Positions 14,195 through 27,603 of a stretch of 43,055 bases of DNA are shown here, piece by piece. Below the pieces are notes generated by a model. It saw only the letters and a list, made by a program, of their open reading frames with translations. It ran no database searches and was not told the DNA's origin. How positions within the stretch are numbered: position 1 is the first letter of the stretch; every line of letters begins with the position of its first letter. This stretch comes from an uncultured beta proteobacterium (GTDB lineage Bacteria; Pseudomonadota; Gammaproteobacteria; Burkholderiales; Casimicrobiaceae). The stretch covers positions 1 to 43,055 of the forward strand of contig CAIWHR010000557.1 of the NCBI GenBank assembly GCA_903912485.1, in the 5' to 3' direction. The translations under genes and the position numbers were made by a program.

Positions 14195-15340
14195 ATGCTT
14201 GGAAATCGGATAAGGGAATATCCGCCTGCCTTTCGCAGAATTCGAACCGGCGAACCCGTGCCGTGGAGCATTTTCGACGCGGACGGCCTTCTCCTGCTGA
14301 AGAAGGGGCTGCCCGTCGAGGATGAACGCCAGTTGCGGGAACTGACGTCGCGCGGCGTCGTGACGCAGGAGATGCTCGGATTCGATCTTCCGAACTCCAG
14401 GAGCAGGGTGCGTTCGCCTCGCGCCACCCGGAAAAGCGGCAGCCCGTTCTGGATCTGGGAGAATCTCCAGAAGCGGCTCAAGCGACTGTCGAAGACGATC
14501 GCCGAACCCGAGTCCGGATTCGTCGAGGACGTTCGCGAACTCGCCGCGCTCGTCGATTCCTCGGCCAACCAGAACATCGACGCGGCCTGCTTCTTCGTCA
14601 CGCAATCGAGCGGCGCCGACTATCCCATCTCCCACATGATTCACACGGCGATCATCTGTTCGGTCGTCGCCCGGCGCCTGGCATGGGACGACGAGAAGCG
14701 GATGCACGCCATCTGCGCCGCGTTGACGATGAACCTGGGCATGGTCGACCTGCAGGAGCGCCTGTGGAGCGCTCAGGGCGCTCTGACGGACAGGGCGAGA
14801 TCGCTCATCCGCACTCACCCGGCGAACGGCGTTCGCATTCTGCAGGGCGCCGGGCTGAGCGACCCGAGCTGGCTGGACGCCGTCCGTCAGCATCATGAGA
14901 ACAGCGAGGGCACCGGTTATCCGGGGGGTGTTCCGCCGTCCGAGGTGGCAGACCTGGTGGGCAAGGCCGACGTCCTGTCCGCAAGAATCAGTCCAAGGAA
15001 ATACCGGCGCGGCTTCTCGCCAAGCCGTGCCCTGCGCGATCTGTACCTCCGAAACGAGGAGCGCCAGGATCAGGTCATCATGGCCATGATTCACGTGTTC
15101 GGCATCTATCCGCCCGGAAGTTTCGTTCGGCTGGCGAACAACGAGATCGGGGTCGTGGTCAGTCGCGGCGCGAGCAGCATCACACCGGTCGTCGCCGCGG
15201 TCATCGACAGGCAGGGAATCCCCCACGGCGTTCCGGTCCGCAGGGACACCGGACTGCCACACCACAAGATCCGCTCGGATCTCCCGCCGGATTCGGTGAG
15301 GCTCTGGCTCAACTGGGAGACGCTGTTCGAGAAGGAATGA
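14195..15340 (+). CDS. HD-GYP-type protein with a broken HD motif
   Basis: A 381-residue protein; ATG 14195 follows GGTGGG at short spacing. The frame is open upstream but that part is hydrolase debris. The N-terminal ~60 residues (GEPVPWSIFDADGLLLLKKG, then LTSRGV) match the small domain often preceding HD-GYP. The HD-GYP core follows: ISHMIHTAIICSVVARRL, then AALTMNLGMVDL where 'LLHDIGK' is expected, RTHPANGVRIL, VRQHHENSEGTGYPGG and KADVLSARISPRKYR. Thus the GYP and HHE signatures survive but the namesake His-Asp is Met-Asn. HD-GYP enzymes hydrolyse cyclic di-GMP; this one probably cannot, and may bind it instead. A diguanylate cyclase gene lies 229 bases downstream. Confidence 0.82.
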   Translation: MLGNRIREYPPAFRRIRTGEPVPWSIFDADGLLLLKKGLPVEDERQLRELTSRGVVTQEMLGFDLPNSRSRVRSPRATRKSGSPFWIWENLQKRLKRLSKTIAEPESGFVEDVRELAALVDSSANQNIDAACFFVTQSSGADYPISHMIHTAIICSVVARRLAWDDEKRMHAICAALTMNLGMVDLQERLWSAQGALTDRARSLIRTHPANGVRILQGAGLSDPSWLDAVRQHHENSEGTGYPGGVPPSEVADLVGKADVLSARISPRKYRRGFSPSRALRDLYLRNEERQDQVIMAMIHVFGIYPPGSFVRLANNEIGVVVSRGASSITPVVAAVIDRQGIPHGVPVRRDTGLPHHKIRSDLPPDSVRLWLNWETLFEKE

Positions 15341-15569
15341 GCCGCGGAGGCGGCGTTCGAACTGCGCCAGCTTTTCCACGGCGCCGCGTCCCTATCGGCC
15401 GACGAACGGACGGCGCCGGGCTATACTTTGGGCCAGCGGAAACGACCGCCGCCCCGGGTTCGGCCCGGCAAGCGTCAACGGCACGCCGGCCCGTGCGCTT
15501 CGGCGTCTGCGTGGCGCTGCCGGATTCCGGGTTGTTCGCCTGTCGCACAGCAAGAAGAACGGTGCCTCC

Positions 15570-16874
15570 ATGAGTCTCGTTCCGGATTTCCCGGCCGCTG
15601 CGCCCCGACGGGAAGCCAACCCGCGGCGACTGCTGCGGCGATTCGGCTGGCTGTCCGTTGCCTCGGTGCTGATCATCCTCGTGCTGATCGGCGCGAACCT
15701 GCGATTGATCCTGCGCCAGCACCTGATCGAGGAAGCGAAGCGGAATTCGGTGGCCGTGGCGATGGCGATCTTCGAGCGGGAGCAGATGAAGCTCCTGGAG
15801 TCGGTGCCCGGCGGCGGATACACCGTCACGGTGTCCGCCGCAGACCTTCCGGATCTCGACGGAAGGATGCGCACGTTCGTGAAGGCATTCGGGATCGTCA
15901 AGGTGAAGGTCTACGACGCGACCGGCAAGATCGTCTACAGCACCGACGGGACGATCATCGGCAAGGTGGACGCCACCAACGCGCGTCTCGATCGCGTGCT
16001 GCGTCACGGGGAGACCGATTCGGAACTGGTCCACAAGGAAAGCATTCCGGATCTCCAGGGCCAGGAGCACTTCGACGCCGACGTGGTGGAGACCTACATC
16101 GCGATTCGCGTGGGCAGCTCGATCGCCGGAAGTTTCGAGGTCTACATGGACGTCACGCCGGCGTACGCACAGATCTCGCGGACGGTCCAGTATTCGACCG
16201 CAGTGCTGCTGCTGGTGCTGGTCGTCGTGTTCGGCGCGCTTTACTACCCGATGCGCCAGGGGATGACGCAACTGGTGCACGTGCAGAACCGGCTGAGGGA
16301 CTTGGCTGCGATCGACGTGCTCACCGGGCTCTACAACCGGCGCCATCTGTTCGTTCGGATCGGGCAGGAGTCCTCGCGGATGGCACGCCAGATCGGGCGC
16401 CGGAAGCCAACCGAGTTCATCAGCTTCATCATGACCGACATCGACCGGTTCAAGGCGATCAACGACACTCACGGGCATCTGGCGGGCGACCAGGTGCTGC
16501 AGGAAGTGGCGAAGCGGCTTAAAGGGGCCCTGCGCCCCTACGACGTCATCGGCCGATTCGGCGGCGAGGAATTCCTGGTGATGCTGCCGCATACCGCGCT
16601 GCCGGATGCCGCGGCCGTCGCCGAGCGCATGCGCCGTACGATCGAGCAGCCTGCGGTCGATGCGGGGGGCGAGGCGATCACCGTCACCGCCAGTTTCGGG
16701 GTGGCGTGTTGCCAGGATGCCGACGACAGCGCCGACGCGGCCGTCGCACGCGCCGACAGCGCCCTGTATCTGGCCAAGAACGGTGGACGCAACAAGGTCG
16801 TCAGCGCCGACTCTGCCGCTGACGGCGGCGGTGTCGCGACCGGCGGGGCGCCGCCTCCGCCGGCTGGCAGCTAG
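15570..16874 (+). CDS. Membrane diguanylate cyclase (GGDEF)
   Basis: A 434-residue protein. Transmembrane helices at ~27-49 and ~208-227 enclose a periplasmic sensor region of about 160 residues (Cache-like: VKVYDATGKIVYSTDG). The GGDEF domain begins with LRDLAAIDVLTGLYNRRHL, has MTDIDRFKAINDTHGH, and the active loop GGEEF at 331-335. RPYD at 322-325 is a standard RxxD inhibitory site, so product feedback is expected. The enzyme makes cyclic di-GMP from two GTP. The C-terminus ends in a Gly/Pro-rich tail. A TATACT box at 15422-15427 could be a -10 element, with a leader of ~135 bases, but no -35 is evident. Confidence 0.93.
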   Translation: MSLVPDFPAAAPRREANPRRLLRRFGWLSVASVLIILVLIGANLRLILRQHLIEEAKRNSVAVAMAIFEREQMKLLESVPGGGYTVTVSAADLPDLDGRMRTFVKAFGIVKVKVYDATGKIVYSTDGTIIGKVDATNARLDRVLRHGETDSELVHKESIPDLQGQEHFDADVVETYIAIRVGSSIAGSFEVYMDVTPAYAQISRTVQYSTAVLLLVLVVVFGALYYPMRQGMTQLVHVQNRLRDLAAIDVLTGLYNRRHLFVRIGQESSRMARQIGRRKPTEFISFIMTDIDRFKAINDTHGHLAGDQVLQEVAKRLKGALRPYDVIGRFGGEEFLVMLPHTALPDAAAVAERMRRTIEQPAVDAGGEAITVTASFGVACCQDADDSADAAVARADSALYLAKNGGRNKVVSADSAADGGGVATGGAPPPPAGS

Positions 16875-16925
16875 CGCCGGAGGCCATCCCCCGCAGGCTG
16901 CGAACCCGGTCCGGTGCTATTCTCC

Positions 16926-16941
16926 ATGTTAACGCTACCAT
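16926..16941. promoter_or_regulatory. Palindromic operator upstream of the LacI-family gene
   Basis: ATGTTAACGCTACCAT is an imperfect palindrome (ATGTTA-N4-TACCAT). It matches the site in the promoter at 26308-26323 in the outer ATG/CAT and in the TTA/TA-C positions, and resembles the ATGTTA-N4-TAACAT operator remembered for E. coli GntR. A weak -10-like TATTCT at 16918-16923 lies immediately upstream, so a bound repressor would cover the transcription start. This suggests autoregulation. Confidence 0.65.
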
Positions 16942-16960
16942 GGCCGTCGCCAGGACGCTT

Positions 16961-18010
16961 ATGAAACGCGAACCCCCCGCGCGTAAACGCCGTGGCCACG
17001 GAGCGGTGCTCATCAGCGATGTGGCGCGACTGGCGGGCGTTTCCGCGATCACCGTTTCCCGCACGCTGAACAAGCCGCAGATCGTCGCCGATTCGACCCG
17101 CAGGGCGGTGCAGGCGGCGGTCGACCGCCTGGGCTACATCCCGAATCGACTGGCCGGCAACCTGGCCTCGACGCAGACCCGCACCATCGGCGTCGTGATT
17201 CCGTCGCTCTTCAGCAACATCTTCGCCGATTCGGTCCGCGGCATGACCGACGTGCTGGGCAGCGAAGGCTACCAGGTGCTGCTCGGCGTGACCGATGATT
17301 CGCTGGACATGGAGACGAAGCACGTCGTCTCGCTGCTCGGTCAGCGCGTCGCGGGCGTCATCCTGACGGGGGGAATGCACCAGAGGCGCACCCGCGAGCT
17401 GCTGAAGAATTCGGGCGTGCCGGTGGTCGAGACCAACGTCATGGTGCGCAGCTCCATCGACATGGTCGTCGGCTATTCGAACGAAGCCGCCGCCTACGCG
17501 ATGACCCGGCATCTTGCCCGCTGCGGGTATCGCCGGATCGGCTTTGTCACCACGCCGATGGAACGCAACGACCGCGCGCAGGCGCGCCGGGCGGGCTGGC
17601 TGCGCGCCGTGCGGGAATTCGGCCTCGTCGAGCGCGCCGGCCTGTTCCGGGAGGCCACGCTCACCGTTTCGCACGGCGCTCGCGCCTTCGGCGAGATGCT
17701 GGCGTCGGACCCGGACGTGGAGGCCGTGTTTCTTGCCCACGACATGTTGGCCTCGGGGGCGATGTTCGAGGCCCGCCGGCGCGGCCTGCGCGTTCCCGAC
17801 GACGTCGGCATCGCCGGCTTCGACGATCTCGACATCGCGCAGGAGTTCGTGCCCGCACTGACGACGGTGCGCACGCCGCGCTACGCCATCGGCTCCACCG
17901 CCGCCCGGATGGTGCTGCAGCGCATTCGCGGCGAGGCCACCGGCTCAGCGTGCGTGGACATGGGCTTCGAGATCGTGCAACGCGACTCGACCCGGCGCCC
18001 GCCCGCCTGA
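16961..18010 (+). CDS. LacI-family transcriptional regulator, GntR-like subgroup
   Basis: A 349-residue repressor. ATG 16961 is chosen because AGGA lies 5 bases before it. An ATG at 16940 in frame falls inside the operator and lacks a ribosome-binding site. The helix-turn-helix and hinge read LISDVARLAGVSAITVSRTL to YIPNRLAGNL. The effector domain follows: TIGVVIPSLFSNIFADSVRG, GVILTGGMHQRRTRELL, VVGYSNEAAAYAM and VGIAGFDDLDIAQEF. The pattern is closest, by eye, to gluconate repressor GntR. It converges on the TRAP genes 37 bases away. The shared operator (16926, 26308) makes it the likely repressor of the whole catabolic run. The inducer is unknown; sugar acids are plausible. Confidence 0.9.
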   Translation: MKREPPARKRRGHGAVLISDVARLAGVSAITVSRTLNKPQIVADSTRRAVQAAVDRLGYIPNRLAGNLASTQTRTIGVVIPSLFSNIFADSVRGMTDVLGSEGYQVLLGVTDDSLDMETKHVVSLLGQRVAGVILTGGMHQRRTRELLKNSGVPVVETNVMVRSSIDMVVGYSNEAAAYAMTRHLARCGYRRIGFVTTPMERNDRAQARRAGWLRAVREFGLVERAGLFREATLTVSHGARAFGEMLASDPDVEAVFLAHDMLASGAMFEARRRGLRVPDDVGIAGFDDLDIAQEFVPALTTVRTPRYAIGSTAARMVLQRIRGEATGSACVDMGFEIVQRDSTRRPPA

Positions 18011-18019
18011 GCCCGCCGT

Positions 18020-18035
18020 CCCGCCTTCCGGCGGG
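18020..18035. terminator. Hairpin between convergent regulator and dctM genes
   Basis: CCCGCC (18020-18025) and GGCGGG (18030-18035) enclose a TTCC tetraloop. It lies 10 bases after the regulator stop and 12 bases beyond the dctM stop. A U-tract is lacking on the plus strand; CCGCCTATTTCTT further on is only mildly T-rich. It could serve both genes. Confidence 0.45.
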
Positions 18036-18047
18036 GGCGTCTGCCGC

Positions 18048-19337
18048 CTATTTCTTGAGGAACATGTCGGGCAGCATCATCGCGACCGGCGGGTACGCGA
18101 TCATCAGCGCGACGATCAGCATCATGATGAACACGAACATGGCGACGTAGGGGACGCAGGGCCCGGTCTTGACGCGGGCCAGCCCGCAGGTGATGTTCAG
18201 CAGGATTCCGACCGGCGGCGTGATCCCGCCGATCTGCATGACGATGACGATGATGACGCCGAAATACACCGGGTCGAAACCGTATTTCATGCCCATGATG
18301 TTCAGCAGCGGTCCGAAGATCGTCGCCATCGCGAGCACCTCCATGACGGTGCCGAGGATGAGCAGGAACACGAGGACGATGCCGAGAAACAGGTACGAGT
18401 TCGTGGTCAGCGACGTCATGAACCCGACCACGGCCTCGGGCACGTTCTGCCACGCCAGCAGCCAGCCGAAGACCGACGCAAACAGGATGATGGACATCAC
18501 CATCGCGGTCACCGAGGCCGCGTCGACGAATATCTTCGGCATGTCCTTGTACGTGAACGCCTTGTAGAAAAACTTGCCCACGACGAAGGCGTAGACCACG
18601 GCGACGGTCCCGGCCTCGGTCGGAGTGAAGATGCCGCCGGCAATCCCGCCCATGATGATGAGCGGCATGCCGAGCGCCGGGATCGCGATCTTCGCCTCCC
18701 TGGCGACTGCGCGGAGACCGACCCACTTCTCGCTGGCGATGCCGGGCTGGACGCGGGGGCTGGCATAGAAGTACACGACGACCATGAAGGCCAGCCCGAT
18801 CAGCACCCCCGGCAGGAAGCCGGCGAGGAAGAGCCCCCCGATCGAGACGTTGGTCATCGACCCGTAGAGGATCATCAGGATGCTCGGCGGAATGATCGGC
18901 CCCAGCGAGCCGGCCGCGGCCTGCAACGCCGCCACGAAGGGCCGCCCGTAGCCCTTCTCGATCATCGAAGGCACCATCACCGAGCCGATGGCGGTGGTGT
19001 CCGCCACGGCCGATCCGGACACTCCCGCAAAGATCATGCTCGACAGGACGCAGGTCTGACCGAGCCCGCCGCGGATGTGCCCGATGATTGCGTGGGCAAA
19101 GTTGACCAGCCGTATCGTCAGGCCGCCACGGTTCATCAGTTCGCCGGAAAGGACGAACAGCGGAATGGCGAGCAGCGCGAAGCTGTCGGCCGCACTGGCG
19201 ATCCGCTGCGCGAAGACGACCAGCGAGATGTCGGTCATGGTGATCGCGGCCAGCACCGACAGGCCGATGGAAAAGCCGATCGGGACGCCGATGATGATCA
19301 GGACGAAGAACAGCGCGAACATGACAATCGCTTCCAT
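18048..19337 (-). CDS. dctM: TRAP transporter large permease subunit
   Basis: A 429-residue polytopic membrane protein with about 12 hydrophobic helices, the size of DctM. ATG 19337 is taken because AAGGAGT precedes it; a GTG four codons upstream is another possible start but overlaps that box. Typical sequences are SGELMNRGGLTIRLVNFA, VSGSAVADTTAIGSVMVP, IIPPSILMILYG, FTPTEAGTVAVVYAF and MQIGGITPPVGILLN. With DctQ and DctP it drives sodium-coupled import of an organic anion or polyol across the inner membrane. It is the last gene of the run, 103 bases after dctQ. Confidence 0.95.
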   Translation of the reverse strand: MEAIVMFALFFVLIIIGVPIGFSIGLSVLAAITMTDISLVVFAQRIASAADSFALLAIPLFVLSGELMNRGGLTIRLVNFAHAIIGHIRGGLGQTCVLSSMIFAGVSGSAVADTTAIGSVMVPSMIEKGYGRPFVAALQAAAGSLGPIIPPSILMILYGSMTNVSIGGLFLAGFLPGVLIGLAFMVVVYFYASPRVQPGIASEKWVGLRAVAREAKIAIPALGMPLIIMGGIAGGIFTPTEAGTVAVVYAFVVGKFFYKAFTYKDMPKIFVDAASVTAMVMSIILFASVFGWLLAWQNVPEAVVGFMTSLTTNSYLFLGIVLVFLLILGTVMEVLAMATIFGPLLNIMGMKYGFDPVYFGVIIVIVMQIGGITPPVGILLNITCGLARVKTGPCVPYVAMFVFIMMLIVALMIAYPPVAMMLPDMFLKK

Positions 19338-19440
19338 GGCCCTGGTCACTCCTTGCGTGTCGGATGCAGCGGTTGCCCAATTGCCATTTTCGGATTCCTC
19401 TGTTCGTGCATCCGGCGAAGCCGCCGGCCGATCGGCCGCG

Positions 19441-19908
19441 TCAGCTCGCCGGCTTTCCCGCGAATCGCCGGTACAGCCGGATCGTCAACTCGATGACCAT
19501 CAGCGCGCTGCCGAAGGGCAGCGCCGCGTAGACGACCATCTTCGGCAGGCCCAGACCGGAGGTGGACTGGCCCGCCGAGAGGTTCATGAGCATGACGCCG
19601 GAGATGGTCAGCACCACGAACAGCGCGTAGATGAGGACGTCGATCAGGGTGAACATGAAGACCCTGTACTTCCCCTGGTAGCGGTCCATCAGGAAGTCGA
19701 CGGTAGCGTGCTCCGCCCGGACGAAGCTGACGACGATGCCCGTGAACACCAGCCACACGAAGGCGTAGCGGGACAGCTCTTCCGTCCAGGCGAGCGAAAA
19801 GTTCAGGACGTAACGGAAGATGACCTGCAGGAACGTCGTGACGGCGAGCACGGTGAAGCACACCACGATCAACCACTCGCTTAGCCGCAGATGGCTGGAT
19901 TTCTTCAT
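19441..19908 (-). CDS. dctQ: TRAP transporter small permease subunit
   Basis: A 155-residue protein with four hydrophobic helices and the family signature around VTTFLQVIFRYVLNFSLAWTEELSRYAFVW (shown here only to mark residues 23-52: FQVxxRY and W-x-EE-x-x-R). It continues with RAEHATVDFLMDRYQGKYR. The DctQ subunit supports the DctM channel and docks the loaded DctP receptor. It lies between dctP (194 bases upstream) and dctM. The long gap before it contains a stem-loop. Size and motifs match the family fully. Confidence 0.93.
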   Translation of the reverse strand: MKKSSHLRLSEWLIVVCFTVLAVTTFLQVIFRYVLNFSLAWTEELSRYAFVWLVFTGIVVSFVRAEHATVDFLMDRYQGKYRVFMFTLIDVLIYALFVVLTISGVMLMNLSAGQSTSGLGLPKMVVYAALPFGSALMVIELTIRLYRRFAGKPAS

Positions 19909-20073
19909 GCCCGTACCCCGATGGCTGAGATGGTTGACGCGCTTCGCGATCCGGACGCGGAAGCGGCCCGATGGCCGCCGCCCCCGGGCGCGAAGCCGTC
20001 GGCGGCTTCACGCGCTCGTGCGCAGCGCGGCGGGCGGCGGGCCGGCGGCCCGGATCGCCGATCGTCTGCGAAG

Positions 20074-20093
20074 GCCCGGCCCGAAGACCGGGC
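20074..20093 (-). terminator. Stem-loop just after dctP, before dctQ
   Basis: GCCCGG (20074-20079) and CCGGGC (20088-20093) pair around an 8-base loop, starting 10 bases after the dctP stop. The following ~165 bases to dctQ are non-coding and GC-rich. No U-tract follows on the minus strand. An mRNA-end or attenuator structure here would let the binding protein be made in excess over the permease, as is common in binding-protein operons; that role is inference. Confidence 0.45.
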
Positions 20094-20102
20094 GCGGTCC
20101 GG

Positions 20103-21092
20103 CTACCTGCCGAGTTCCTTGCGGATCTTCTGCACGAACTCGAAGATGCCCCGTTCCTTCGCGTATTCGTCGACCATGGGGAGAAAGCGCTTCGCCAGTT
20201 CCTTCTCGTCCAGGTAGGTGGTCTTGAAGCCGTACTTCTCTTCCAGCGTCTTGCGGGCCGTCTTTTCCGCTTCGGCGCCGGTAAAGGGCCGGAACCAGAT
20301 GCCGGCTTCCTTCGCCGCGTCCTTGAAGATCTGCTGGTGCTCCTTCGGCAGCTTCTGGTAGAACTTCTCGCTCATTTCCCACACCGCCGACTGGTAGAGG
20401 TGATGCGAGACGATGGCGCGATTCTCGATCTCGAAGAACTTCATCGCGATGACGCCCGGGTCTTCCTGCTCGTGCCCGCTGACCACGCCCGTCTGCACCG
20501 CCGTGTAGATTTCGTTGAACGGCAGCGGCGTGGGGTTCATGCCCATGGTACGCAGCACCTTGAGGTACAGGGGCGAATTGGGCGACCGGATCTTGATGCC
20601 CTTCAGATCGTCGATGGTGGCGACGTTCTTGTCCTTCAGCCAGATGTTGCGGTAGGCCTGGTCGACGAACCAGAGGATCCGCACGCCGGTCTTGGCCAGG
20701 AACATTTCGGCGAGTTCGTCGCCGATCTTGCCGTTGAGGATCCTGTGCACGTCGTCGAAATTGCTCAGCACGCCCGGCAGGCCGATCGCCTCGAACTCCT
20801 TGACGTGGTTGGGCAATATCGCCGAATACCCGAACTGCATTTCGAGCGTGCCGGCCTGCATCTGCTCCAGCATCGCGCCTTCGTCGCCGAGCACGCTGTT
20901 GTAGAACACCTTGAACGCGTAGGCGTTGTTCGTCTTCTCGTTGACGATCGCCTGGAACTTCTCCATGTACTTGTTCATGTAGAACGATTCGGACTGGATG
21001 CTGCCGATCCGGACCGGTATCGGGGCGGCCGCGGCCGTGCCCATGGCCAACAACATCAAGAAGCCAACGACGGTAGACATGAAGCGTTTCAT
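20103..21092 (-). CDS. dctP: TRAP transporter periplasmic solute-binding protein, DctP family
   Basis: A 329-residue protein. ATG 21092 follows a near-perfect AGGAGGAG box 7 bases upstream, the strongest ribosome-binding site in this run. The signal peptide is MKRFMSTVVGFLMLLAMGTAAAA. The binding domain shows YMNKYMEKFQAIVNEKT, LKGIKIRSPNSPLYLKVLR with the conserved Arg that usually grips the ligand carboxylate, and MNPTPLPFNEIYTAVQTGVV. The 'DGxE' after GVV is SGHEQED. The conserved Arg hints at a carboxylated ligand such as a sugar acid, though DctP proteins for polyols are also known. Partners are DctQ and DctM downstream; catabolic genes lie upstream. Confidence 0.94.
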   Translation of the reverse strand: MKRFMSTVVGFLMLLAMGTAAAAPIPVRIGSIQSESFYMNKYMEKFQAIVNEKTNNAYAFKVFYNSVLGDEGAMLEQMQAGTLEMQFGYSAILPNHVKEFEAIGLPGVLSNFDDVHRILNGKIGDELAEMFLAKTGVRILWFVDQAYRNIWLKDKNVATIDDLKGIKIRSPNSPLYLKVLRTMGMNPTPLPFNEIYTAVQTGVVSGHEQEDPGVIAMKFFEIENRAIVSHHLYQSAVWEMSEKFYQKLPKEHQQIFKDAAKEAGIWFRPFTGAEAEKTARKTLEEKYGFKTTYLDEKELAKRFLPMVDEYAKERGIFEFVQKIRKELGR

Positions 21093-21198
21093 CTTTGCTC
21101 TCCTCCTGGACTGAATCGTTCCGGAACTGCAGTTGTGATCAACCAATGAATCCGCTGCGGCTCGAGTCTGACGCCCGGCCTGCAGAAAACCGTACCGC

Positions 21199-22296
21199 CT
21201 ACTTCGCCCTGGATCCGGCGCCCAACGCATCGGCAGCGAGCACCGCCCGCTCCAGCCGTGCCTCGTCCACCGGCTTGATCAGCGCGCGCACGTAAGGTGC
21301 GCGCTCCCAAGTGTGACGGGCGATCTGCGCGGCGACTCCGGCAGGATCCCCCGGATACCCCAGTTGCGCAAGCGAGCACGGCAACCCCATGCGCCCGTAG
21401 AAGTCGACCAGGTCCGCGACAAAGGCCGCCGGCCGCTCTTCCAGAACCAGCTGCACCAGCAGGCCGAACGCCACCTGCTCGCCGTGCAGGGCCCGGGCGA
21501 GCTCGGGTACGGTCGACAAGCCGCGGGTCATCGAATGGGCGATCGACAGCCCGCCGTTCTCGAACGCCAGCCCGGAGAGCAGGATGGTCGCCTCCACCGT
21601 GCGCTCGAAGTCTTCGCTGAGCTGCTTCGCGCGCGACGCCGCGAGCGCACCCTCGGCGTGCGCGCGAATGGCGGCGTAGCAGGCGTCGGCCAGCGTCAGC
21701 GCCAGATACGGCGGGCGCGCCTTGTAGAAATTGTTGCCGCCCGTCGCGAAGCACTGCTCGGCCTCGAACTTCTTCGACAGCGCGTCGCCCACGCCGGAGA
21801 CGAAGAACCGCTCCGGCGCCCCGATGATCACCGCGGTGTCGACCAGCACGGCGTCCGGATTGACGGGCATGGCCCGGACCTCGTGCAGCACGTGGTCCTT
21901 CGTGTAGACGACCACCAGCCGGCTGGTGGGCGAGTCGTTCGACGCGATGGTCGGCACGATGATCAGCGGCCGGTCAAGCTGGATGCGCACGCCCTTGGCC
22001 GTGTCGATGGCCTTGCCGCCACCGACGCCTATCACCACGTCGGCGCCGGCCGCGCCGGCCTCGGCGCCGAGGCGCGCGATCTCGTCGGCGGTGCACTCGC
22101 CGCCGAATTCGGCGAAGCGGGTCGCGCCGGCCAGCGGGCCCAGGCTGGCTTCGAGGCGCTGGCGCAGCAATGCCAGAACGATTCCGTCGGCAATCACCAG
22201 CGGGTGCTTGCCATAGCCTCCCGCCAGCTCGCCGAGCTGATCGAGCGCCCCCGGACCCTGCACGTAGCGATGCGGCGAACCGAATGCACGCAGCAT
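21199..22296 (-). CDS. Iron-type alcohol dehydrogenase, glycerol dehydrogenase (GldA)-like
   Basis: A 365-residue cytoplasmic NAD-dependent enzyme. GVGGGKAIDTAK (~90-101) is the nucleotide loop. VPTIASNDSPTS (~114) and NPDAVLVDT (~146) follow. Predicted metal ligands are Asp171 (SGVGDAL), His254 (SIAHSM) and His271 (LHGEQVAFG), in the same spacing as in GldA, which is about the same length. GldA oxidises glycerol to dihydroxyacetone and accepts other vicinal diols. Here the neighbours suggest oxidation of an imported polyol or hydroxy compound to a ketone. Its ATG is 4 bases after the kinase stop, so the two genes are tightly coupled. Confidence 0.9.
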   Translation of the reverse strand: MLRAFGSPHRYVQGPGALDQLGELAGGYGKHPLVIADGIVLALLRQRLEASLGPLAGATRFAEFGGECTADEIARLGAEAGAAGADVVIGVGGGKAIDTAKGVRIQLDRPLIIVPTIASNDSPTSRLVVVYTKDHVLHEVRAMPVNPDAVLVDTAVIIGAPERFFVSGVGDALSKKFEAEQCFATGGNNFYKARPPYLALTLADACYAAIRAHAEGALAASRAKQLSEDFERTVEATILLSGLAFENGGLSIAHSMTRGLSTVPELARALHGEQVAFGLLVQLVLEERPAAFVADLVDFYGRMGLPCSLAQLGYPGDPAGVAAQIARHTWERAPYVRALIKPVDEARLERAVLAADALGAGSRAK

Positions 22297-22300
22297 GACG

Positions 22301-23821
22301 TCAGGCCTTCCCGACGGCGGAGAGCCGGTGGTTGATGTCGATCAATTGCTTCGCCGTGTCGTGATAGATCCCGTACATCTCCTCGTACAGCGGACGGCGG
22401 GTCGGATCGGGTTCGTGGCGCGCGACCACCGAGATGCACTGCTTCGCCGCGGTGATCTCGTCCGGAAACACCCCGACGCCGACGCCCGCGACCAGCGCCG
22501 CACCGAACGACGCGTCGGTCACGCGCGGCACGAGGATCGAGATGCCCAGCACGTCGGCAACGATCTGCCGCCACGTGGAGCTCCGCGCGCCGCCGCCGAT
22601 GATGCGCGCCTCGGCCATGCCGAGGTTCTGCGCACGCAGCTGCTCGAGAACGTCGCGGAGCGAGAACGCGATCCCTTCGTAGAGCGCGCGTACGAAGTGA
22701 CCGCGGTCGTGGCGGAACGTCATGCCGACGAAATCGGCGCGCAACAGCGGATCCCAGTGCGGCGCGCGCTCACCCTGCATGTACGGGTGAAACAGCAGCC
22801 CGTCGGCGCCCGGCGCGATGCCGGTGGCGAGTCGATCCATCGTGCTGAACGCCTCGGCGCCACTGCCACCGGGCTCGAGGAAGAACCGGTCGCGCAGCCA
22901 TCGATGCGCCGAGGCGCAGGAGTTGGTCGCGGTGATCGTGTACCAGTGTCCCGGGATCACAAACGGATAGTTGATCAGCGTCGGGTGCACGTGCGGCTGG
23001 CGCCCGACGATGCACACGGCACCCGCCGTCGCGAGCTTCACTGTCCCCTGGCCGACGGCGATCGCCCCCGCGCCGTAGACTTCGACCGAAGTGTCCGAGC
23101 TGCCGCAGACGACCGGGGTGCCGGCCGCCAGCCCGCTCGCCTGCGCCGCGGCCAGCAGGACGGTCCCCACGACCGTCGTCGGTTTGACGATGGGCGGCAG
23201 GATGCGCATGTCCAGATCGATCATCGAGCACAGCCGCTCCGACCACGCGTTGTTGGCGGCGTCGAAGAGCAGCGTGCCGACCGCCTCGGTGGGGTCGGTC
23301 TCCCACGTGCCGGTGAGGCGCGAGCGCAGCCAGTCCTTGGCGACGTACAGTCGCTTCGTCCGGGCGAGCGCCTCAGGCTCGTGGCGCGCAAGCCACAGCA
23401 GTTGCGACTGGGTCCAGGTCGGCGCGGGGCGGTTGCAGCCGATGGCGAGAATCTCCGCACCGTGCTTCTCCTGCAGTTCCTTCGTCTCGGCGCCGCTGCG
23501 CGCGTCGCTCCACAGGATCGCCGGGCGGATGACCCGGCCCTGCGCATCCTCCAGCACCGGCGTGTGCGCCCCGGCGCTGAAGGCGATCGCGGCGATCTCG
23601 TCGGCCGTGATGCCGGCCTCGGCCAGCGCGCGCGGTACCGTCGTGCACAGCGCCCGCCACCAATCGGCCGGATCCTGCTCGCTCCAGCCGGGATGCGCCG
23701 AGCGGGTCTCGATGTCGACGCCCGCCGAGCCGCCGACGCGGCCGTCGGGGGCAACGACCATCGTCTTCAGGCCGCCGGCGCCGATGTCGATGCCCATCAG
23801 CCAGATCTTCGCTGCGCTCAT
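22301..23821 (-). CDS. FGGY-family carbohydrate kinase, xylulokinase-like
   Basis: A 506-residue kinase, the usual family size. The ATP-site loop is MGIDIGAGGLKTMVV. HPGWSEQDPADWW, AAIAFSAGAHTPVL, ILWSDARSGAE and PTWTQSQLLWL make up the sugar side. The second domain has VCGSSDTSVEVYGAGA, YEGIAFSLRDVLEQL and the adenine-binding IGGGARSSTWRQIVADVLG. Members phosphorylate ketoses or polyols such as xylulose, ribulose, glycerol or erythritol. The IGGGA...W..I.AD pattern favours the xylulokinase branch. It lies 39 bases after the SDR gene. The exact sugar cannot be read from sequence. Confidence 0.92.
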   Translation of the reverse strand: MSAAKIWLMGIDIGAGGLKTMVVAPDGRVGGSAGVDIETRSAHPGWSEQDPADWWRALCTTVPRALAEAGITADEIAAIAFSAGAHTPVLEDAQGRVIRPAILWSDARSGAETKELQEKHGAEILAIGCNRPAPTWTQSQLLWLARHEPEALARTKRLYVAKDWLRSRLTGTWETDPTEAVGTLLFDAANNAWSERLCSMIDLDMRILPPIVKPTTVVGTVLLAAAQASGLAAGTPVVCGSSDTSVEVYGAGAIAVGQGTVKLATAGAVCIVGRQPHVHPTLINYPFVIPGHWYTITATNSCASAHRWLRDRFFLEPGGSGAEAFSTMDRLATGIAPGADGLLFHPYMQGERAPHWDPLLRADFVGMTFRHDRGHFVRALYEGIAFSLRDVLEQLRAQNLGMAEARIIGGGARSSTWRQIVADVLGISILVPRVTDASFGAALVAGVGVGVFPDEITAAKQCISVVARHEPDPTRRPLYEEMYGIYHDTAKQLIDINHRLSAVGKA

Positions 23822-23860
23822 GTGCCCATACCCCCCGTCCGTGACGTTGCCATGCTCACT

Positions 23861-24628
23861 TCAACCCCAGTAGAAATCGCGCCTGCCGCCATCCATGCAG
23901 ACATGCTCGCCGTTGATGAAGCCCGCGTGGGTCGAACACAGGAAAGCCACCAGCGCCGCGACTTCCTGCGGCTGGCACATGCGCCCCACCGGGTTCTGCT
24001 GGTGCAGCCGCTCGCGCATTTCGGGCGAAAACTGCGCGATCAGCGCGGTCTCGACGTAACCGGGCGCGATCGCGTTCGCGGTGATGCCGAAGGGCCCGAC
24101 CTCCTTGGCCAGCGTCTGCGTGAACCCCAGGATGCCGGCCTTCGCGGCGGAATAGTGCGCGACACCCGGCCGCCCGCCGCCGGTGAAATTCATCGAGCAG
24201 GTATTGACGATGCGGCCGAATCCTCCGGCCTTCATGTGCGGGATGACCTCCCGGGACCACAGGAACGTGCTCTTCATGTGGACGTGGATCATCGTGTCCC
24301 ACGCCTCGGCGGGCATGTCGGCGACGGGGTAGGCCGGCTTCACGCCGATCCCTGCGTTGTTGATCAGGATGTCGATCCTTCCGTAGCGCCGGGCCACGTC
24401 GGCCACCGTGCGCTTCGCCACCGCTTCGTCGGCGGCGTCGCCCGGGTAGAAGGCTGCGTCGATGCCTTCGGTCGCGAGCGCGGCGACCGCGCGCTCCGCG
24501 GTGGCCGCATCGAGGTCGTTGATCACGACCGTCGCGCCCTCGCCGCCGAGCACCCGGGCGTCGGCGAGACCGATGCCCTGGCCGCCGCCAGTGATCAACG
24601 CCACCCTGCCTGCAAGACCCAGGTCCAT
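23861..24628 (-). CDS. Short-chain dehydrogenase/reductase
   Basis: A 255-residue classical SDR. ATG 24628 has GAGGAGT 5 bases upstream; the same frame is open further but without a start this good. Rossmann loop TGGGQGIG (13-20), NNAG (90-93), Ser145 in NTCSMN, and the catalytic Tyr159/Lys163 pair in HYSAAK are present. PGYVETAL and CMDGG complete the family marks. Asp38 after the second strand (VINDLD) favours NAD over NADP. The place of the Asn of the catalytic tetrad is His117 (VHMKSTF), a common variant. It lies between the oxidase and kinase genes and probably oxidises a secondary hydroxyl of the same substrate. Confidence 0.92.
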   Translation of the reverse strand: MDLGLAGRVALITGGGQGIGLADARVLGGEGATVVINDLDAATAERAVAALATEGIDAAFYPGDAADEAVAKRTVADVARRYGRIDILINNAGIGVKPAYPVADMPAEAWDTMIHVHMKSTFLWSREVIPHMKAGGFGRIVNTCSMNFTGGGRPGVAHYSAAKAGILGFTQTLAKEVGPFGITANAIAPGYVETALIAQFSPEMRERLHQQNPVGRMCQPQEVAALVAFLCSTHAGFINGEHVCMDGGRRDFYWG

Positions 24629-24686
24629 CGTCACTCCTCGCTCGGTCCGGCGATCGGGGCCGCCGCCGGACCTGCGGCTCGCTTCG

Positions 24687-26255
24687 TCACGCGGCGCCTC
24701 CATCCGGGCCGAGCGCAAGCTTGCCCGGACAGAGGATCTGGCCCGGATCGATGCCGGCCTTGAGGTGCCTCAGCAGCGCCAGTCCCGTCGACCCGAGCTG
24801 CTGTTCGAGATACGGCGCGAGTCGCATGCCGACGCCGTGATGGTCGTTCATGACCCCGCCGGACTCGATCGCGGCGAGCGCCGCCGCCCGCACGACGCGA
24901 TCGTGCAACTCGAGTGCGCTCTCGAGATCGTCCGGCCCCTTGGGAATGCCGAAACGCGGGTAGATCATCGACCCCCACTCGAACCAGTGCGACAGGTGGG
25001 TCCGGACGGTCAGTCCCCAGACCGGGTCGATGGACTCGCGCATGGCGCAAGTGACGTTCCGGTAAAGCGCCTCGATGTGGGTGAAGTCCGACACGGCATC
25101 CATCGTGCACCAGATCTGCGGAAGCTGCGGCGCGTACGGCGGGTGGTAGAAGACATAGCGCTTGTCCCACCACGTCTCGCCGATCGTGGCGTCGAGTTCG
25201 CGGGCGCCCTGCCCCACGCAGATCTCGCGGCAGATCGCCGCCTCGGCATCGACCAGAGAAGGGTGGTCGCCGTCGAACATGACGACCATGGTTTCGCTGT
25301 CGAGCCCGGCGTCGACCGCGCGGTTGAGGCTGTGCATCGCCGCGTCCTTGTCGTACAGGCGCATCACCGCGGGCCGCAGACCGCTGGTCATGATGCGACG
25401 GCCGGCCTCGATTCCCTGCGCCAGGCCGTCGAATCGGAAGGCGCCGAAACTGCGCCGCGCCGGAATCCGCCGCAGCTTGACCTTCACCGCGGTGATGACG
25501 CCCAGCACACCCTCGCTGCCCACGAAAAGCTGCGTCACTTCCGGTCCGACGCCGTGCCGCGGCACTTCGGGAAGCTGGACGATGTCGCCGCCGGGCAGGA
25601 CGACTTCGACGGACAGGACGTGGTCCTGGATCGTCCCGTACTTGGTCGACAGTACGCCGGAACCCCTTGCCGCGACGCAGCCGCCGATGCTCGCCCACTC
25701 CGCCGATGCCGGGTAATGCGTGAAGGTCAGCCCCTGGGCATTGAGGTCGTCTTCGAACTCCTTGACGTTCATGCCCGGTTCGACCGTGCAGGTCAGCGAA
25801 AGAAGATCCAGGTGCCGCACGCGCTTCATCCGGCCCATGTTGAGCAGAATGCCGCCGCAGTTGGCGTTCGCGGCACCCTGGACGCCGGAACCGCCACCCA
25901 GCGGAGTCACCGGAACGCGGAGTCGGGTGGCGAGCTTCATGATCGCCGCGACCTCCTCGGTGGAGGTCGGTGCGGCCACCACGTCCTGGGTGGCAAGCGG
26001 CTTTCCGTGATGCGCGTGGATATAGGTGAGCCAACTCATGTCGCCCGGGTATTGCCGCCGCGCTTCGGCTCCCTGGAGCACGCGCTCGGCACCCACGATC
26101 GCGGCCACCTCGGCGGCAAGCTCGCGGGAGTCGAAGTCGGAGCGCGCGCCGAACGTGCCGTACGTCGGCCACTTGATGTCGTTCATGCGGCACGCACCGC
26201 GGATGCGGATGCCAGCCGGGGAAGTCCGTTTCGCTTCATGCCGCTCGTTCTCCAT
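24687..26255 (-). CDS. FAD-linked oxidase (glycolate/lactate dehydrogenase or AGPS-like)
   Basis: A 522-residue flavoprotein. Start 26255 (MENERHEAK) is chosen because it lies ~45 bases from the predicted transcription start; MNDIKWPTYG at 26186 is a good alternative and neither has a strong ribosome-binding site. The PCMH-type FAD domain shows VAAPTSTEEVAAIMKLA, VTPLGGGSGVQG, LTCTVEPGMNVKEFE, ASIGGCVAARGSG and GSEGVLGVITAVKVKL. The C-terminal cap ends in NDHHGVGMRLAPYLEQQLG and KAGIDPGQILCPGKL, as in D-lactate/glycolate dehydrogenases and alkyldihydroxyacetonephosphate synthase. It is first gene of the catabolic run and probably oxidises a 2-hydroxy acid or related alcohol. Confidence 0.9.
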   Translation of the reverse strand: MENERHEAKRTSPAGIRIRGACRMNDIKWPTYGTFGARSDFDSRELAAEVAAIVGAERVLQGAEARRQYPGDMSWLTYIHAHHGKPLATQDVVAAPTSTEEVAAIMKLATRLRVPVTPLGGGSGVQGAANANCGGILLNMGRMKRVRHLDLLSLTCTVEPGMNVKEFEDDLNAQGLTFTHYPASAEWASIGGCVAARGSGVLSTKYGTIQDHVLSVEVVLPGGDIVQLPEVPRHGVGPEVTQLFVGSEGVLGVITAVKVKLRRIPARRSFGAFRFDGLAQGIEAGRRIMTSGLRPAVMRLYDKDAAMHSLNRAVDAGLDSETMVVMFDGDHPSLVDAEAAICREICVGQGARELDATIGETWWDKRYVFYHPPYAPQLPQIWCTMDAVSDFTHIEALYRNVTCAMRESIDPVWGLTVRTHLSHWFEWGSMIYPRFGIPKGPDDLESALELHDRVVRAAALAAIESGGVMNDHHGVGMRLAPYLEQQLGSTGLALLRHLKAGIDPGQILCPGKLALGPDGGAA

Positions 26256-26307
26256 TGTCTGACCCGCTGGCCTCGGACGAGTCCGCGCACCTGAATCGGC
26301 GCGGGAA

Positions 26308-26336
26308 ATGTTAGCGGTAGCATTTTTTCCGGTCAA
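26308..26336 (-). promoter_or_regulatory. Promoter of the catabolic run with overlapping LacI-type operator
   Basis: Reading the minus strand, TTGACC (26331-26336) and TAACAT (26308-26313) are separated by exactly 17 bases and make a good sigma-70 promoter. The operator ATGTTAGCGGTAGCAT (plus-strand reading, 26308-26323) covers the -10 and most of the spacer, so binding would block RNA polymerase. It is the second copy of the palindrome found before the LacI-family gene. Transcription should begin near 26300. Confidence 0.75.
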
Positions 26337-26469
26337 GCTGCAATGCAATGGCTGCACTGCAACATGGATCGGCCGGCGCTGCCACGCCTGCGCCCACCGT
26401 GCCCCGAGGCGGGCCGGCTCGGCGCCCGCGTCGGTTCTATGGACCCCGAGAGCGCAAGACCCCGCCCTG

Positions 26470-27603
26470 TCAATCCAGTTCGATCACCTCACGCTGCGCG
26501 GCCGGAGCAGGCGGCACCGGGGTTGCCTCGTAGAATGGCTGCGTCCCCGAAGGCGGATCCCGGCCGTAGTTCGCGACGCTCAGGCGACCGCTACTGTGCA
26601 ACCGGATCTCGGCAAATCCAAAGGTGGTGCCAAGCTTCGGCGCCCACTCTTTCTCAAGCGGTGCGCCACCGTTTCCGGAAACGATCTGCCATATCCTCGG
26701 TGCCGCCACGAGCCGGGCAGCATTGAACGCGTGCACATGGCTGCAGAAATAGGCCTTCACCTTCGGAGTCCTCTGCAGCAGAGCGGCAAGATCACCTGCC
26801 AGCTGATGCTGGTTCAGATTCAGGATGGTGTGGCCATAGGCGGGCGGCGGCACGAAATCCGGGACTTCGATCGGGCGATGGCCCATGAGCAGGATTGCGC
26901 TGATCGCGGGATCGGCTTGCGCTGCCGCGAGATCAGCCGCGAGCCAGTGGATCGGAATCCATCCCGAGTAAGGCAATCCGGTAGCCGGATTCGTGGCCGT
27001 GGACAGCGTGTCGGTGTTGATGATCACGATATGCACGGCGCCCCAGTTGAACGAATGCGTGTAGCGGCTTTCGTCCTCGACCAATTGATCCGGATTGGCA
27101 CCTCCGGGCCTGGGACCATTGGCTTCGAAGGGAAACAGCCGATTGCTCGCGATCCAGGAATTCCAGACGGAGTAGGAGTAGGGGTACGGTGCCTCGTCGT
27201 CGACGGCCTTGTCCGAATAATCCATCTCGTGGTTCCCCGGCAGCGGAACGAGGTTGATGGCCGCCCCGCCGTGGAATCCTCGAAACAACGTCATCCAGGC
27301 GTTGAGTTGCACTTCCAGTGCACGGCCCTGATCCTCCAGCTCGCCGACCACCAGATCGCCCAGGATGAACGTGTGGTCCGGCTTGCTCGGCAACGCCGCG
27401 ATGTCCGCGACATTCTGCCGAAGCTGCGGGATGTTGGTACCGCTCGGATTCGCCTGCGGGATGGGTTGCCAATTCGCGTTGCCAATCTGCAAGTCTCCCA
27501 TGACGACCAGCGACCGTTCCACGGGATCGCTTCGGGTCGCATTGTCGGTAAGGCAACCGGTGAGGATGAACGTCAGCGCAAGTGCCGGGAGCAGTGCAGC
27601 CAT
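26470..27603 (-). CDS. Metallophosphoesterase lipoprotein with an altered first motif
   Basis: A 377-residue protein. ATG 27603 is chosen because it starts a lipoprotein signal (MAALLPALALTFILTGC, lipobox LTGC, Cys17); upstream residues in frame lack protein character. Calcineurin-like motifs are LGDLVVG, PGNHEMD, MGHRPIE and CSHVHAF. The first motif, usually D-x-H, reads GDLQIG, so the His metal ligand is Gln. That may change metal use or abolish activity. It is unrelated in length and detail to the Tat-exported enzyme at 6603. It probably faces the periplasm. It stands apart from the catabolic run, 214 bases from the oxidase start. Confidence 0.8.
   Translation of the reverse strand: MAALLPALALTFILTGCLTDNATRSDPVERSLVVMGDLQIGNANWQPIPQANPSGTNIPQLRQNVADIAALPSKPDHTFILGDLVVGELEDQGRALEVQLNAWMTLFRGFHGGAAINLVPLPGNHEMDYSDKAVDDEAPYPYSYSVWNSWIASNRLFPFEANGPRPGGANPDQLVEDESRYTHSFNWGAVHIVIINTDTLSTATNPATGLPYSGWIPIHWLAADLAAAQADPAISAILLMGHRPIEVPDFVPPPAYGHTILNLNQHQLAGDLAALLQRTPKVKAYFCSHVHAFNAARLVAAPRIWQIVSGNGGAPLEKEWAPKLGTTFGFAEIRLHSSGRLSVANYGRDPPSGTQPFYEATPVPPAPAAQREVIELD

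What the first reader, a model, noticed from the sequence alone, without database searches (positions are those of the whole stretch)
18048..26255. Candidate undescribed polyol or sugar-acid pathway
A DctPQM importer is joined to four cytoplasmic enzymes: FAD-linked oxidase, SDR, FGGY kinase and GldA-like dehydrogenase. I do not recall a characterised pathway with exactly this set. Three oxidising enzymes and one kinase suggest diol or hydroxy-acid oxidation to a ketose that is then phosphorylated. No aldolase or dehydratase is present, so the product should enter central metabolism directly. GntR-like regulator and operator point to sugar-acid-like inducers; xylulokinase-like and GldA-like enzymes point to polyols.
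Basis: inference. Interest (0 to 1): 0.8.

Follow-up and report, generated by a model that had tools for sequence, protein, structure and literature searches.

The report
Uncharacterised TRAP–kinase sugar-acid operon
This is a real, self-contained bacterial gene set for eating a small, probably acidic, sugar-like compound that I could not identify; its kinase and flavin enzyme are of unfamiliar kinds, and the same enzymes recur in distant bacteria behind different importers.

Summary
Confirmed: a LacI-family regulator (16940-18010) faces one minus-strand operon, 26186→18048: FAD protein, SDR, FGGY kinase, GldA-like dehydrogenase, DctP, DctQ, DctM. Its operator occurs over the only promoter-like -10 and over the regulator's start codon, and nowhere else without mismatch in the assembly. 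The enzyme set is conserved: Pusillimonas keeps it with the TRAP, several Alphaproteobacteria with an ABC importer. New points: the FAD protein is not GlcD-like but alkylglycerone-phosphate-synthase(AGPS)-like, keeping R419, Y578 and two active-site histidines. The kinase signature (AHTDA; relatives AHTDT) differs from XylB (MHGDV) and five other E. coli FGGY kinases, and AHTDT kinases go with the FAD gene. The GldA-like enzyme has an invariant Lys and Arg beside presumed metal ligands. These suggest an anionic polyhydroxy substrate, oxidised to a ketone and phosphorylated; the compound is unknown. Seven paper searches found no description. New variant of a known kind. Boldest open reading: AGPS chemistry run backwards, releasing DHAP from 1-substituted glycerols.

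The parts
16940..18010 (+). LacI-family repressor, GntR (gluconate repressor)-like subgroup
   Evidence: Pfam LacI and Peripla_BP_3 over cut-off; NCBIfam GntR 312.5 bits, below cut-off 400
16926..16941 (.). operator copy 1, overlaps the regulator's start codon (autorepression, inferred)
   Evidence: 0-mismatch match to ATGNTASCGYTAACAT; only two such sites in the assembly
18048..19349 (-). DctM, TRAP large permease
   Evidence: Pfam DctM 363 bits; NCBIfam dctM 381 over 268
19441..19908 (-). DctQ, TRAP small permease
   Evidence: Pfam DctQ 103.6 bits over 28.3
20103..21092 (-). DctP, TRAP solute-binding protein; keeps the Arg of the LKGIKIR stretch
   Evidence: Pfam DctP 201 bits; NCBIfam TRAP_S1 177.8 over 50; Arg shared in the printed alignments to 4p47 and 8t9t
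21199..22296 (-). GldA-like iron-containing alcohol dehydrogenase with K175 and R258 beside the presumed metal ligands D171 and H254
   Evidence: NCBIfam glycerol dehydrogenase 385.6 over 336; residue comparison
22301..23821 (-). FGGY kinase, signature A85 H86 T135 D243 A268
   Evidence: Pfam FGGY_N and FGGY_C; signature
23861..24631 (-). classical SDR dehydrogenase (GGGQGIG, YSAAK)
   Evidence: Pfam adh_short_C2 204 bits; none of the 25 NCBIfam models shown, of 225 matched, reaches its cut-off
24687..26186 (-). AGPS-like FAD protein (FAD_binding_4 + FAD-oxidase_C); R278, R345, H399, H402, Y411, H451, H452 (numbered from the 501-residue frame)
   Evidence: Pfam; profile of A2 versus PDB: AGPS 2uuu 1.3e-102, 4bby 2.6e-94, LDHD 2.5e-71; residue counts
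26308..26323 (.). operator copy 2, overlaps the -10 of the operon's promoter-like site
26308..26336 (-). promoter-like site TTGACC-17-TAACAT
   Evidence: 9 of 12 matches; one found in 9.7 kb, 1.0 expected by chance

Best explanation
A LacI-repressed catabolic operon for one small anionic polyhydroxy compound (sugar acid, or glycerol-like diol carrying an acidic group). Shown: gene content, operator placement, conserved enzyme set, active-site residues. Inferred: the inducer frees the repressor; DctPQM imports the anion; the GldA-like and/or SDR enzyme oxidises a secondary alcohol to a hydroxyketone; the FGGY kinase phosphorylates the ketone on a terminal hydroxyl; the AGPS-like flavoprotein carries out the remaining step (a flavin oxidation, or AGPS-type chemistry at the carbon next to the ketone); the resulting triose or pentose phosphate enters central metabolism without a dedicated aldolase.
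For: Operon, regulator and promoter-embedded operator. Same enzymes with TRAP in Pusillimonas, same gene order, 61-65% identity (FAD, SDR, FGGY, GldA, DctP, DctM; DctQ 46%), and with a CUT1-type ABC importer in Afipia and Ancylobacter and in Roseibium, Shinella and Paracoccus, where the SDR is only distantly related. Of 26 loci whose kinase is at least 50% identical, 17 have an AGPS-like FAD gene; 15 of those 17 have the GldA-like gene, 12 of 17 the SDR; of the 9 without FAD, 0 have GldA and 6 have an SDR. The two FAD loci without GldA end 5.0 and 2.6 kb past the kinase. The pattern held in 19 further regions: 3 of 3 AHTDT kinases have the FAD gene and 2 of 3 GldA (the third lies 4.0 kb from a contig end); 16 of 16 AHTDV kinases have neither (three of these 16 look like contigs seen before). 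Anionic substrate: TRAP-type binding protein; K175/R258 invariant in 14 cluster GldAs, T and N in E. coli GldA; R345 of the FAD protein aligns with LDHD R347 (my reading of the alignment), which binds the substrate carboxylate (PMC10589216, passages read). Ketone-type kinase substrate: the second signature residue is His, as in XylB.
Against: No substrate, no assay. The ABC-borne versions (UgpB/CUT1 type) more often carry neutral sugars (recalled). K175/R258 may bind a phosphate made by the kinase rather than a carboxylate, and 16 of 46 FAD relatives have Lys instead of Arg at 345. The FAD/GldA co-occurrence follows one split in the kinase tree, so the counts are not independent events. GldA scores above the plain glycerol dehydrogenase model. 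The DctP model was poor (pLDDT 64.6), so ligand-pocket reading failed.
Confidence: 0.55

Rival explanations
1. Pentitol/D-xylulose pathway: the dehydrogenases make D-xylulose from a pentitol and the FGGY enzyme is an ordinary xylulokinase.
For: Kinase closest to XylB in PDB (2itm, 2.7e-66); NCBIfam XylB 371.8 bits, just below 380.25; plasmid records name the relatives xylulokinase.
Against: XylB signature MHGDV replaced by AHTDA; 0 of 8 XylB-signature kinases in my loci have an AGPS-like FAD gene, 17 of 17 AHTDT ones do. In the tree E. coli XylB groups with the eight MHGDV loci, apart from the window (quick method). Pentitols carry no charge, yet the importer is a TRAP.
Confidence: 0.12
2. The FAD protein is a plain D-2-hydroxy-acid dehydrogenase (GlcD/LDHD type) acting on a sugar acid, with ETF or quinone as acceptor; kinase and NAD enzymes follow.
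For: Best fold matches are LDHD structures, Z 38.4, rmsd 2.6, 445 aligned, against Z 35.4, rmsd 2.7, 463 aligned for AGPS; R345 and H452 align with LDHD R347 and H443. AGPS-like relatives in Clostridia sit with a probable Fe-S protein and a fused ETF; E. coli ygcU lies near two putative flavoproteins, ygcQR (ETF-like, recalled), and ygcN with an ETF-QO domain. This points to redox.
Against: LDHD metal ligands H398/H405/E442 become H399/Y411/H451; H, Y, H in 46 of 46 relatives. GlcD model 190 bits against a cut-off of 567.9. Profile search prefers AGPS. No ETF or Fe-S gene in the window's operon or inside the ABC-type operons annotated (the Shinella record has a FAD/4Fe-4S pair 4-5 kb upstream, ahead of another ABC set).
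Confidence: 0.2
3. Reverse-AGPS pathway: GldA-like oxidises X-CH2-CHOH-CH2OH to the ketone, FGGY makes the 1-substituted DHA phosphate, and the AGPS-like flavoprotein swaps X for OH, giving DHAP plus HX.
For: AGPS residues R419, Y578 and H616/H617 kept in 46 of 46 relatives; the enzyme order matches AGPS chemistry (recalled); no aldolase needed; accessory genes differ by host in a way that fits a variable X: aminotransferase (L075), MttB-type methyltransferase (L053, L057), Rieske protein plus desaturase-type protein (L047, L068).
Against: The AGPS substrate-binding Arg515 (role recalled, position by my count) is not conserved: it aligns near P352; 0 of 46 relatives have Arg at 352, 1 has Arg and 9 have Lys at 353. 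Probable ETF/Fe-S partners of related proteins suggest redox. Accessory gene names other than the desaturase rest on my reading of sequences.
Confidence: 0.12
4. Ordinary glycerol or tetritol use: GldA makes dihydroxyacetone or erythrulose, FGGY phosphorylates it.
For: GldA over the glycerol dehydrogenase cut-off; distant AGPS-like relatives lie beside glycerol-3-phosphate dehydrogenase and FGGY kinase or GlpK genes.
Against: GlpK signature REYDF absent; GldA differs at K175, R258, N120; TRAP import is unneeded for glycerol; two more oxidoreductases unexplained.
Confidence: 0.08

Closest known systems
E. coli ygc region (ygcU, ygcW, ygcS, ygcQR, ygcE), annotated only as putative
   Same: AGPS-like FAD protein (25%), SDR (33%) and FGGY kinase (23%, partial) near a putative transporter
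   Different: Putative flavoproteins ygcQR nearby, no GldA in the stretch; different kinase signature (RC-DA, partial sequence)
E. coli yia operon (YiaMNO TRAP plus LyxK FGGY kinase)
   Same: TRAP importer joined to an FGGY kinase and a reductase; DctM and DctQ also match YiaN and YiaM models, far below their cut-offs
   Different: Yia has a decarboxylase and epimerases; LyxK signature GKGDV; no AGPS-like or GldA-like enzyme
AGPS (alkylglycerone-phosphate synthase)
   Same: Fold, R419, Y578, H616, H617
   Different: H615 is D450, Arg515 not conserved, no long N-terminal part (AGPS alignment starts near residue 157); bacterial catabolic setting
Xylulokinase XylB
   Same: Overall sequence, signature His and Asp
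   Different: Met to Ala, Gly to Thr, Val to Ala at signature positions
Alphaproteobacterial LacI-FAD-FGGY-ABC-SDR-GldA operons (Afipia, Ancylobacter, Roseibium)
   Same: Kinase 47-61%, GldA 47-60%; SDR 56-58% in Afipia and Ancylobacter
   Different: CUT1 ABC importer; FAD protein only about 30% identical and in another branch of the tree; LacI 28-29% where compared; other inverted repeats upstream; Roseibium SDR much more distant, and its order is GldA-SDR

Membership tests
XylB xylulokinase | NCBIfam TIGR01312 curated cut-off 380.25 bits | tested here: not met
   371.8 bits
XylB xylulokinase | Signature starting Met-His at the first two specificity positions (PMC3245297, passages read) | tested here: not met
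   Window Ala-His; full signature AHTDA versus E. coli XylB MHGDV
Glycerol kinase | Signature Arg-Glu-Tyr-Asp-Phe (PMC3245297) | tested here: not met
   AHTDA
AGPS | Arg419 and Tyr578 | tested here: met
   R278 and Y411; numbering checked against the R419H (4bc7) and Y578F (4bca) chains in the alignments, titles; 46 of 46 relatives keep both
AGPS | HHH motif 615-617 | tested here: inconclusive
   D450-H451-H452: two of three kept; position 450 is H in 19, D in 17, E in 10 of 46 relatives
AGPS | Arg515, substrate binding (role recalled) | tested here: not met
   Window P352; 0 of 46 relatives with Arg at 352, 1 with Arg and 9 with Lys at 353; alignment is gappy there
AGPS | Ether-forming activity on acyl-DHAP | not testable with these tools
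   needs enzyme assay
D-2-hydroxy-acid dehydrogenase (LDHD/GlcD) | Metal ligands His398, His405, Glu442 (PMC10589216) | tested here: not met
   H399, Y411, H451: one of three kept
D-2-hydroxy-acid dehydrogenase (LDHD/GlcD) | Carboxylate Arg347 and base His443 (PMC10589216) | tested here: met
   R345 and H452; relatives: Arg 30 and Lys 16 of 46 at 345, His 46 of 46 at 452
Glycerol dehydrogenase GldA | NCBIfam PRK09423 cut-off 336 bits | tested here: met
   385.6 bits
Glycerol dehydrogenase GldA | Metal ligands Asp, His, His (roles recalled) | tested here: met
   D171, H254, H271 invariant and aligned with E. coli GldA
Glycerol dehydrogenase GldA | Activity on glycerol | not testable with these tools
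   10 positions invariant in 14 cluster enzymes differ from both reference GldAs
TRAP transporter | DctP, DctQ and DctM together | tested here: met
   Pfam; NCBIfam dctM and TRAP_S1 over cut-off, dctP TIGR00787 just below (171.7 of 175.05)
LacI-family regulator | LacI HTH plus periplasmic-binding-like domain | tested here: met
Gluconate repressor GntR (LacI type) | NCBIfam NF052440 cut-off 400 | tested here: not met
   312.5 bits

The most novel reading that the evidence does not exclude
A bacterial catabolic route that runs AGPS chemistry backwards: a GldA-like enzyme oxidises a 1-substituted glycerol (for instance a glyceryl ether with an acidic or betaine head, such as a betaine-lipid head group), a new FGGY kinase makes the 1-substituted dihydroxyacetone phosphate, and an AGPS-like flavoprotein releases DHAP and the free head group through a flavin adduct without net redox. 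This would be an oxygen-independent way to break an alkyl ether.
Probability: 0.1. Interest if true: 0.85.

Novelty: new variant of a known kind. Interest (0 to 1): 0.45.

Why it matters
The enzyme set is shared by Beta- and Alphaproteobacteria with swapped importers, and its kinase–flavoprotein pair recurs, with more distant members, in Bacillota, Verrucomicrobiota, Lentisphaerota and Planctomycetota, so identifying one substrate would annotate a widespread family that records now call 'xylulokinase' and 'FAD-binding oxidoreductase'. It would also suggest what AGPS-like flavoproteins do in bacteria, including the E. coli ygc genes.

Tried and rejected
Ligand class from DctP: the model was poor (pLDDT 64.6, residues 148-235 below 50). 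The 50 rows shown of the second-look search are solute-binding proteins (sialic acid, sugar acid and others; Z 19.2-20.9), so no ligand is inferred.

GlcD-type glycolate/lactate oxidase for the FAD protein: rejected as a family label because the metal ligands and the GlcD cut-off are not met, kept as a rival for the chemistry.

Sulfonate (DHPS) route: considered because the second-best PDB match of DctP is an isethionate binder and because L048 has a histidinol-dehydrogenase-like gene (my reading); dropped, since that route needs no FGGY kinase (recalled).

Inositol-like or sulfoquinovose-like chemistry: seen only in the Clostridia/Verrucomicrobia-type loci (IolB-like, PfkB, class II aldolase, SftI-like), whose kinases have other signatures (mostly TH.D[NR]); not carried over to the window.

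Polyamine-type setting: FGGY kinases with signature AHTDV lie beside genes that I read as glutamine-synthetase-like, class III aminotransferase, aldehyde dehydrogenase and PuuD-like; these lack FAD and GldA, so they were not used for the substrate.

Gene calling by longest ORF gave antisense artefacts in GC-rich loci; replaced by a GC3 score. Even that missed a GldA gene in L163, which tblastn finds. Locus counts rest on tblastn. Cluster neighbourhoods in Clostridia and Verrucomicrobia still rest on longest ORFs.

Rows dropped before counts: kinase signatures use 79 full-length kinases of 81 loci with a kinase hit (L059 and L085 fell out); FAD residue counts use 44 full-length locus proteins plus two plasmid ones; partial FAD hits in L086, L087 and L098 were left out. 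Signature classes not named in the text: THLDR 2 of 2, THMDR 1 of 2, HHTDN 1 of 1, THVDR 1 of 1 with the FAD gene; AHVDI, AHTDG and MMADW 0 of 1 each.


Full report
What is there. The window holds one minus-strand transcription unit: FAD protein (24687-26186), SDR (23861-24631), FGGY kinase (22301-23821), GldA-like dehydrogenase (21199-22296), DctP (20103-21092), DctQ (19441-19908), DctM (18048-19349), with a convergent LacI-family regulator (16940-18010) at its 3' end. Each protein passes the cut-off of at least one Pfam family. The kinase and the GldA-like gene are 4 bases apart; the largest gap, 194 bases, lies between DctP and DctQ.

Regulation. A GntR-type palindrome occurs at 26308-26323 upstream of the FAD gene and at 16926-16941 over the regulator's start codon. 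A pattern drawn from these two sites finds them and no other exact site in the 5.27 Mb assembly; other sites with up to two mismatches are no more frequent than in the reversed control. The only sigma-70-like site in 16800-26500 has its -10 hexamer inside the operator, as expected of a repressor, although one such site is expected by chance. The regulator is LacI family, most like the GntR model NF052440, below that model's cut-off.

The set is conserved. A kinase-profile scan of public genomes returned the best 80 of 562 relatives. Pusillimonas sp. MFBS29 (L049) has FAD, SDR, FGGY, GldA, DctP, DctQ, DctM in the same order at 61, 65, 64, 61, 65, 46 and 61% identity; it has a LysR gene upstream in place of the LacI gene. 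Afipia, Ancylobacter and other Alphaproteobacteria carry LacI, FAD, FGGY, four ABC genes, SDR and GldA; annotated plasmid copies in Paracoccus contaminans, Shinella and Roseibium have the same gene kinds with a distant SDR. Of the 81 loci counted (80 plus L047, from a genome of the window's order), 26 have a kinase of at least 50% identity: 17 carry an AGPS-like FAD gene, 15 of these 17 the GldA-like gene, 12 the SDR; of the other 9, 0 have GldA and 6 an SDR. The enzymes stay together in several gene orders and with at least two importer types; the TRAP version was seen only in the window and Pusillimonas. The set is rare near the window: kinase relatives of at least 50% identity in 2 of 300 genomes of its order, own included; at E 1e-110 or better in 2 of 398 of its phylum, own included; FAD relatives at E 1e-90 or better only in the window's genome among 274 of its class.

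A further check. In the order of G315, 21 of 61 genomes have a close kinase. I took 18 regions from 17 of these genomes and one from G315. Of these 19, 3 kinases read AHTDT and 16 AHTDV; the FAD gene is in 3 of 3 and 0 of 16, GldA in 2 of 3 (the third is 4.0 kb from a contig end) and 0 of 16. Three of the 16 look like contigs already counted (equal contig lengths). So the link between signature and gene set, first seen, held.

The flavoprotein. A profile of 12 relatives (A2) hits AGPS first (Dictyostelium 2uuu 1.3e-102; mammalian 4bby 2.6e-94), then LDHD (2.5e-71). The printed alignments to the R419H and Y578F mutant chains let me place AGPS R419 on R278 and Y578 on Y411. R278, H399, H402, Y411, H451 and H452 are invariant in 46 of 46 relatives; E. 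coli GlcD lacks R278 and Y411. Against LDHD, whose residues I took from passages of PMC10589216, the metal ligands H398, H405, E442 become H399, Y411, H451, while the carboxylate Arg347 and the base His443 are kept as R345 and H452 (my reading). AGPS Arg515 (role recalled) is not kept. The AlphaFold model (pLDDT 85.5) matches LDHD (Z 38.4, rmsd 2.6, 445 aligned) slightly better than AGPS (Z 35.4, rmsd 2.7, 463 aligned). So it is neither a proper AGPS nor a metal-dependent hydroxy-acid dehydrogenase. In the tree, window and Pusillimonas form a deep branch of their own, apart from the alphaproteobacterial FAD proteins, although long branches make its place unsure; the kinases of these operons do group together. 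The flavoprotein thus seems to have been exchanged inside a conserved enzyme set.

The kinase. At the five specificity positions of Zhang et al. 2011 (PMC3245297, passages read) the window reads AHTDA. E. coli references on the same alignment: GlpK REYDF, XylB MHGDV, LyxK GKGDV, FucK GVFDI, RhaB GVFDL, AraB GSEDC. Among 79 full-length relatives, AHTDT kinases have an AGPS-like FAD gene in the locus in 17 of 17 cases, AHTDA 1 of 1, AHTDV 0 of 11, MHGDV 0 of 8, THIDR 14 of 16, THTDN 9 of 17. The AHTDT/AHTDV split follows the tree, so this is a clade property, not many independent events.

The GldA-like enzyme. It passes the glycerol dehydrogenase model (385.6 over 336) and keeps the presumed metal ligands, but ten positions invariant in 14 cluster enzymes differ from both E. 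coli and Enterococcus gilvus GldA, among them K175 and R258, each four residues after a presumed ligand. That suggests a negatively charged substrate. Together with a TRAP importer and R345 of the flavoprotein this argues for an anionic compound. An alternative is that these residues meet a phosphate put on by the kinase.

Wider relatives. In Clostridia and Planctomycetia loci the kinase–flavoprotein pair recurs with a protein that scores weakly as 4Fe-4S, a fused ETF, PfkB kinase, class II aldolase and an IolB-like protein; Verrucomicrobia and Lentisphaerae loci share PfkB, aldolase and IolB-like genes, without the ETF among their recurrent neighbours and with a further protein that has no Pfam match. 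E. coli ygcU lies near ygcW (SDR), two putative flavoproteins, ygcQR, and ygcE; ygcN has an ETF-QO domain. These partners speak for redox in those relatives. Accessory genes in alphaproteobacterial and Burkholderiaceae loci vary: desaturase-type protein (Pfam); aminotransferase, MttB-like methyltransferase and Rieske protein (my reading of the sequences). This fits a common core acting on a shared part of different compounds, and leaves room for the reverse-AGPS reading.

Mechanism, most likely. Import of an acidic polyhydroxy compound, NAD-linked oxidation to a hydroxyketone, phosphorylation, and a flavoprotein step, giving a phosphorylated product that needs no operon-borne aldolase. Steps shown: genes, regulation sites, residues, conservation. 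Steps inferred: all reactions and their order.

Literature. Ten searches of the open-licence library were run; seven looked for the set or its parts and their listings gave no description of it; three were for active-site residues and kinase signatures. Subscription papers are not covered, so 'undescribed' is provisional.

Verdict. A real, regulated, conserved and apparently uncharacterised catabolic operon with two unfamiliar enzyme variants; ordinary in overall logic. Interest 0.45; new variant of a known kind.

Noticed in passing
L047:5404-12170 and L068:2668-9429: Relatives in the window's order (L068 titled Burkholderiaceae) insert a Rieske-type ferredoxin (my reading) and a desaturase-family membrane protein (PF00487, tested for L068) between SDR and GldA, plus a 102-107 aa Cys-containing protein between FAD and kinase (the L068 copy has no Pfam match).
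   Followed up: partly
L053:11407-12954 and L057:6295-7545: MttB (trimethylamine methyltransferase)-like genes (my reading) beside the FAD-FGGY-GldA genes in two Rhodospirillales assemblies, suggesting a methylated-amine substrate there.
   Followed up: no
L067, L141, L165-L179: FGGY kinases of signature AHTDV sit among genes read as glutamine-synthetase-like, aminotransferase and PuuD-like in many of these loci, an odd place for a sugar kinase.
   Followed up: partly
L091, L094, L097, L113 and similar Clostridia loci: Loci joining an FGGY kinase, AGPS-like flavoprotein, probable Fe-S protein, fused ETF, PfkB, class II aldolase, IolB-like protein and in several DUF4867: apparently another uncharacterised sugar pathway.
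   Followed up: partly
L043:7658-18001 (E. coli K-12): The ygc genes of E. coli look like a distant version of the same idea; the paper search for four ygc names listed three papers, each with one or two occurrences of a name, none about these genes by title.
   Followed up: partly
window 13142-16871: An HD-domain protein (PF13487) followed by a GGDEF-like protein (my reading) next to the regulator: possible cyclic-di-GMP pair; the 13142 ORF start looks too early.
   Followed up: no
window 3011-4387 and 8641-9990: NMT1-like solute-binding-type protein and an amidohydrolase, with no evident link to the operon.
   Followed up: no
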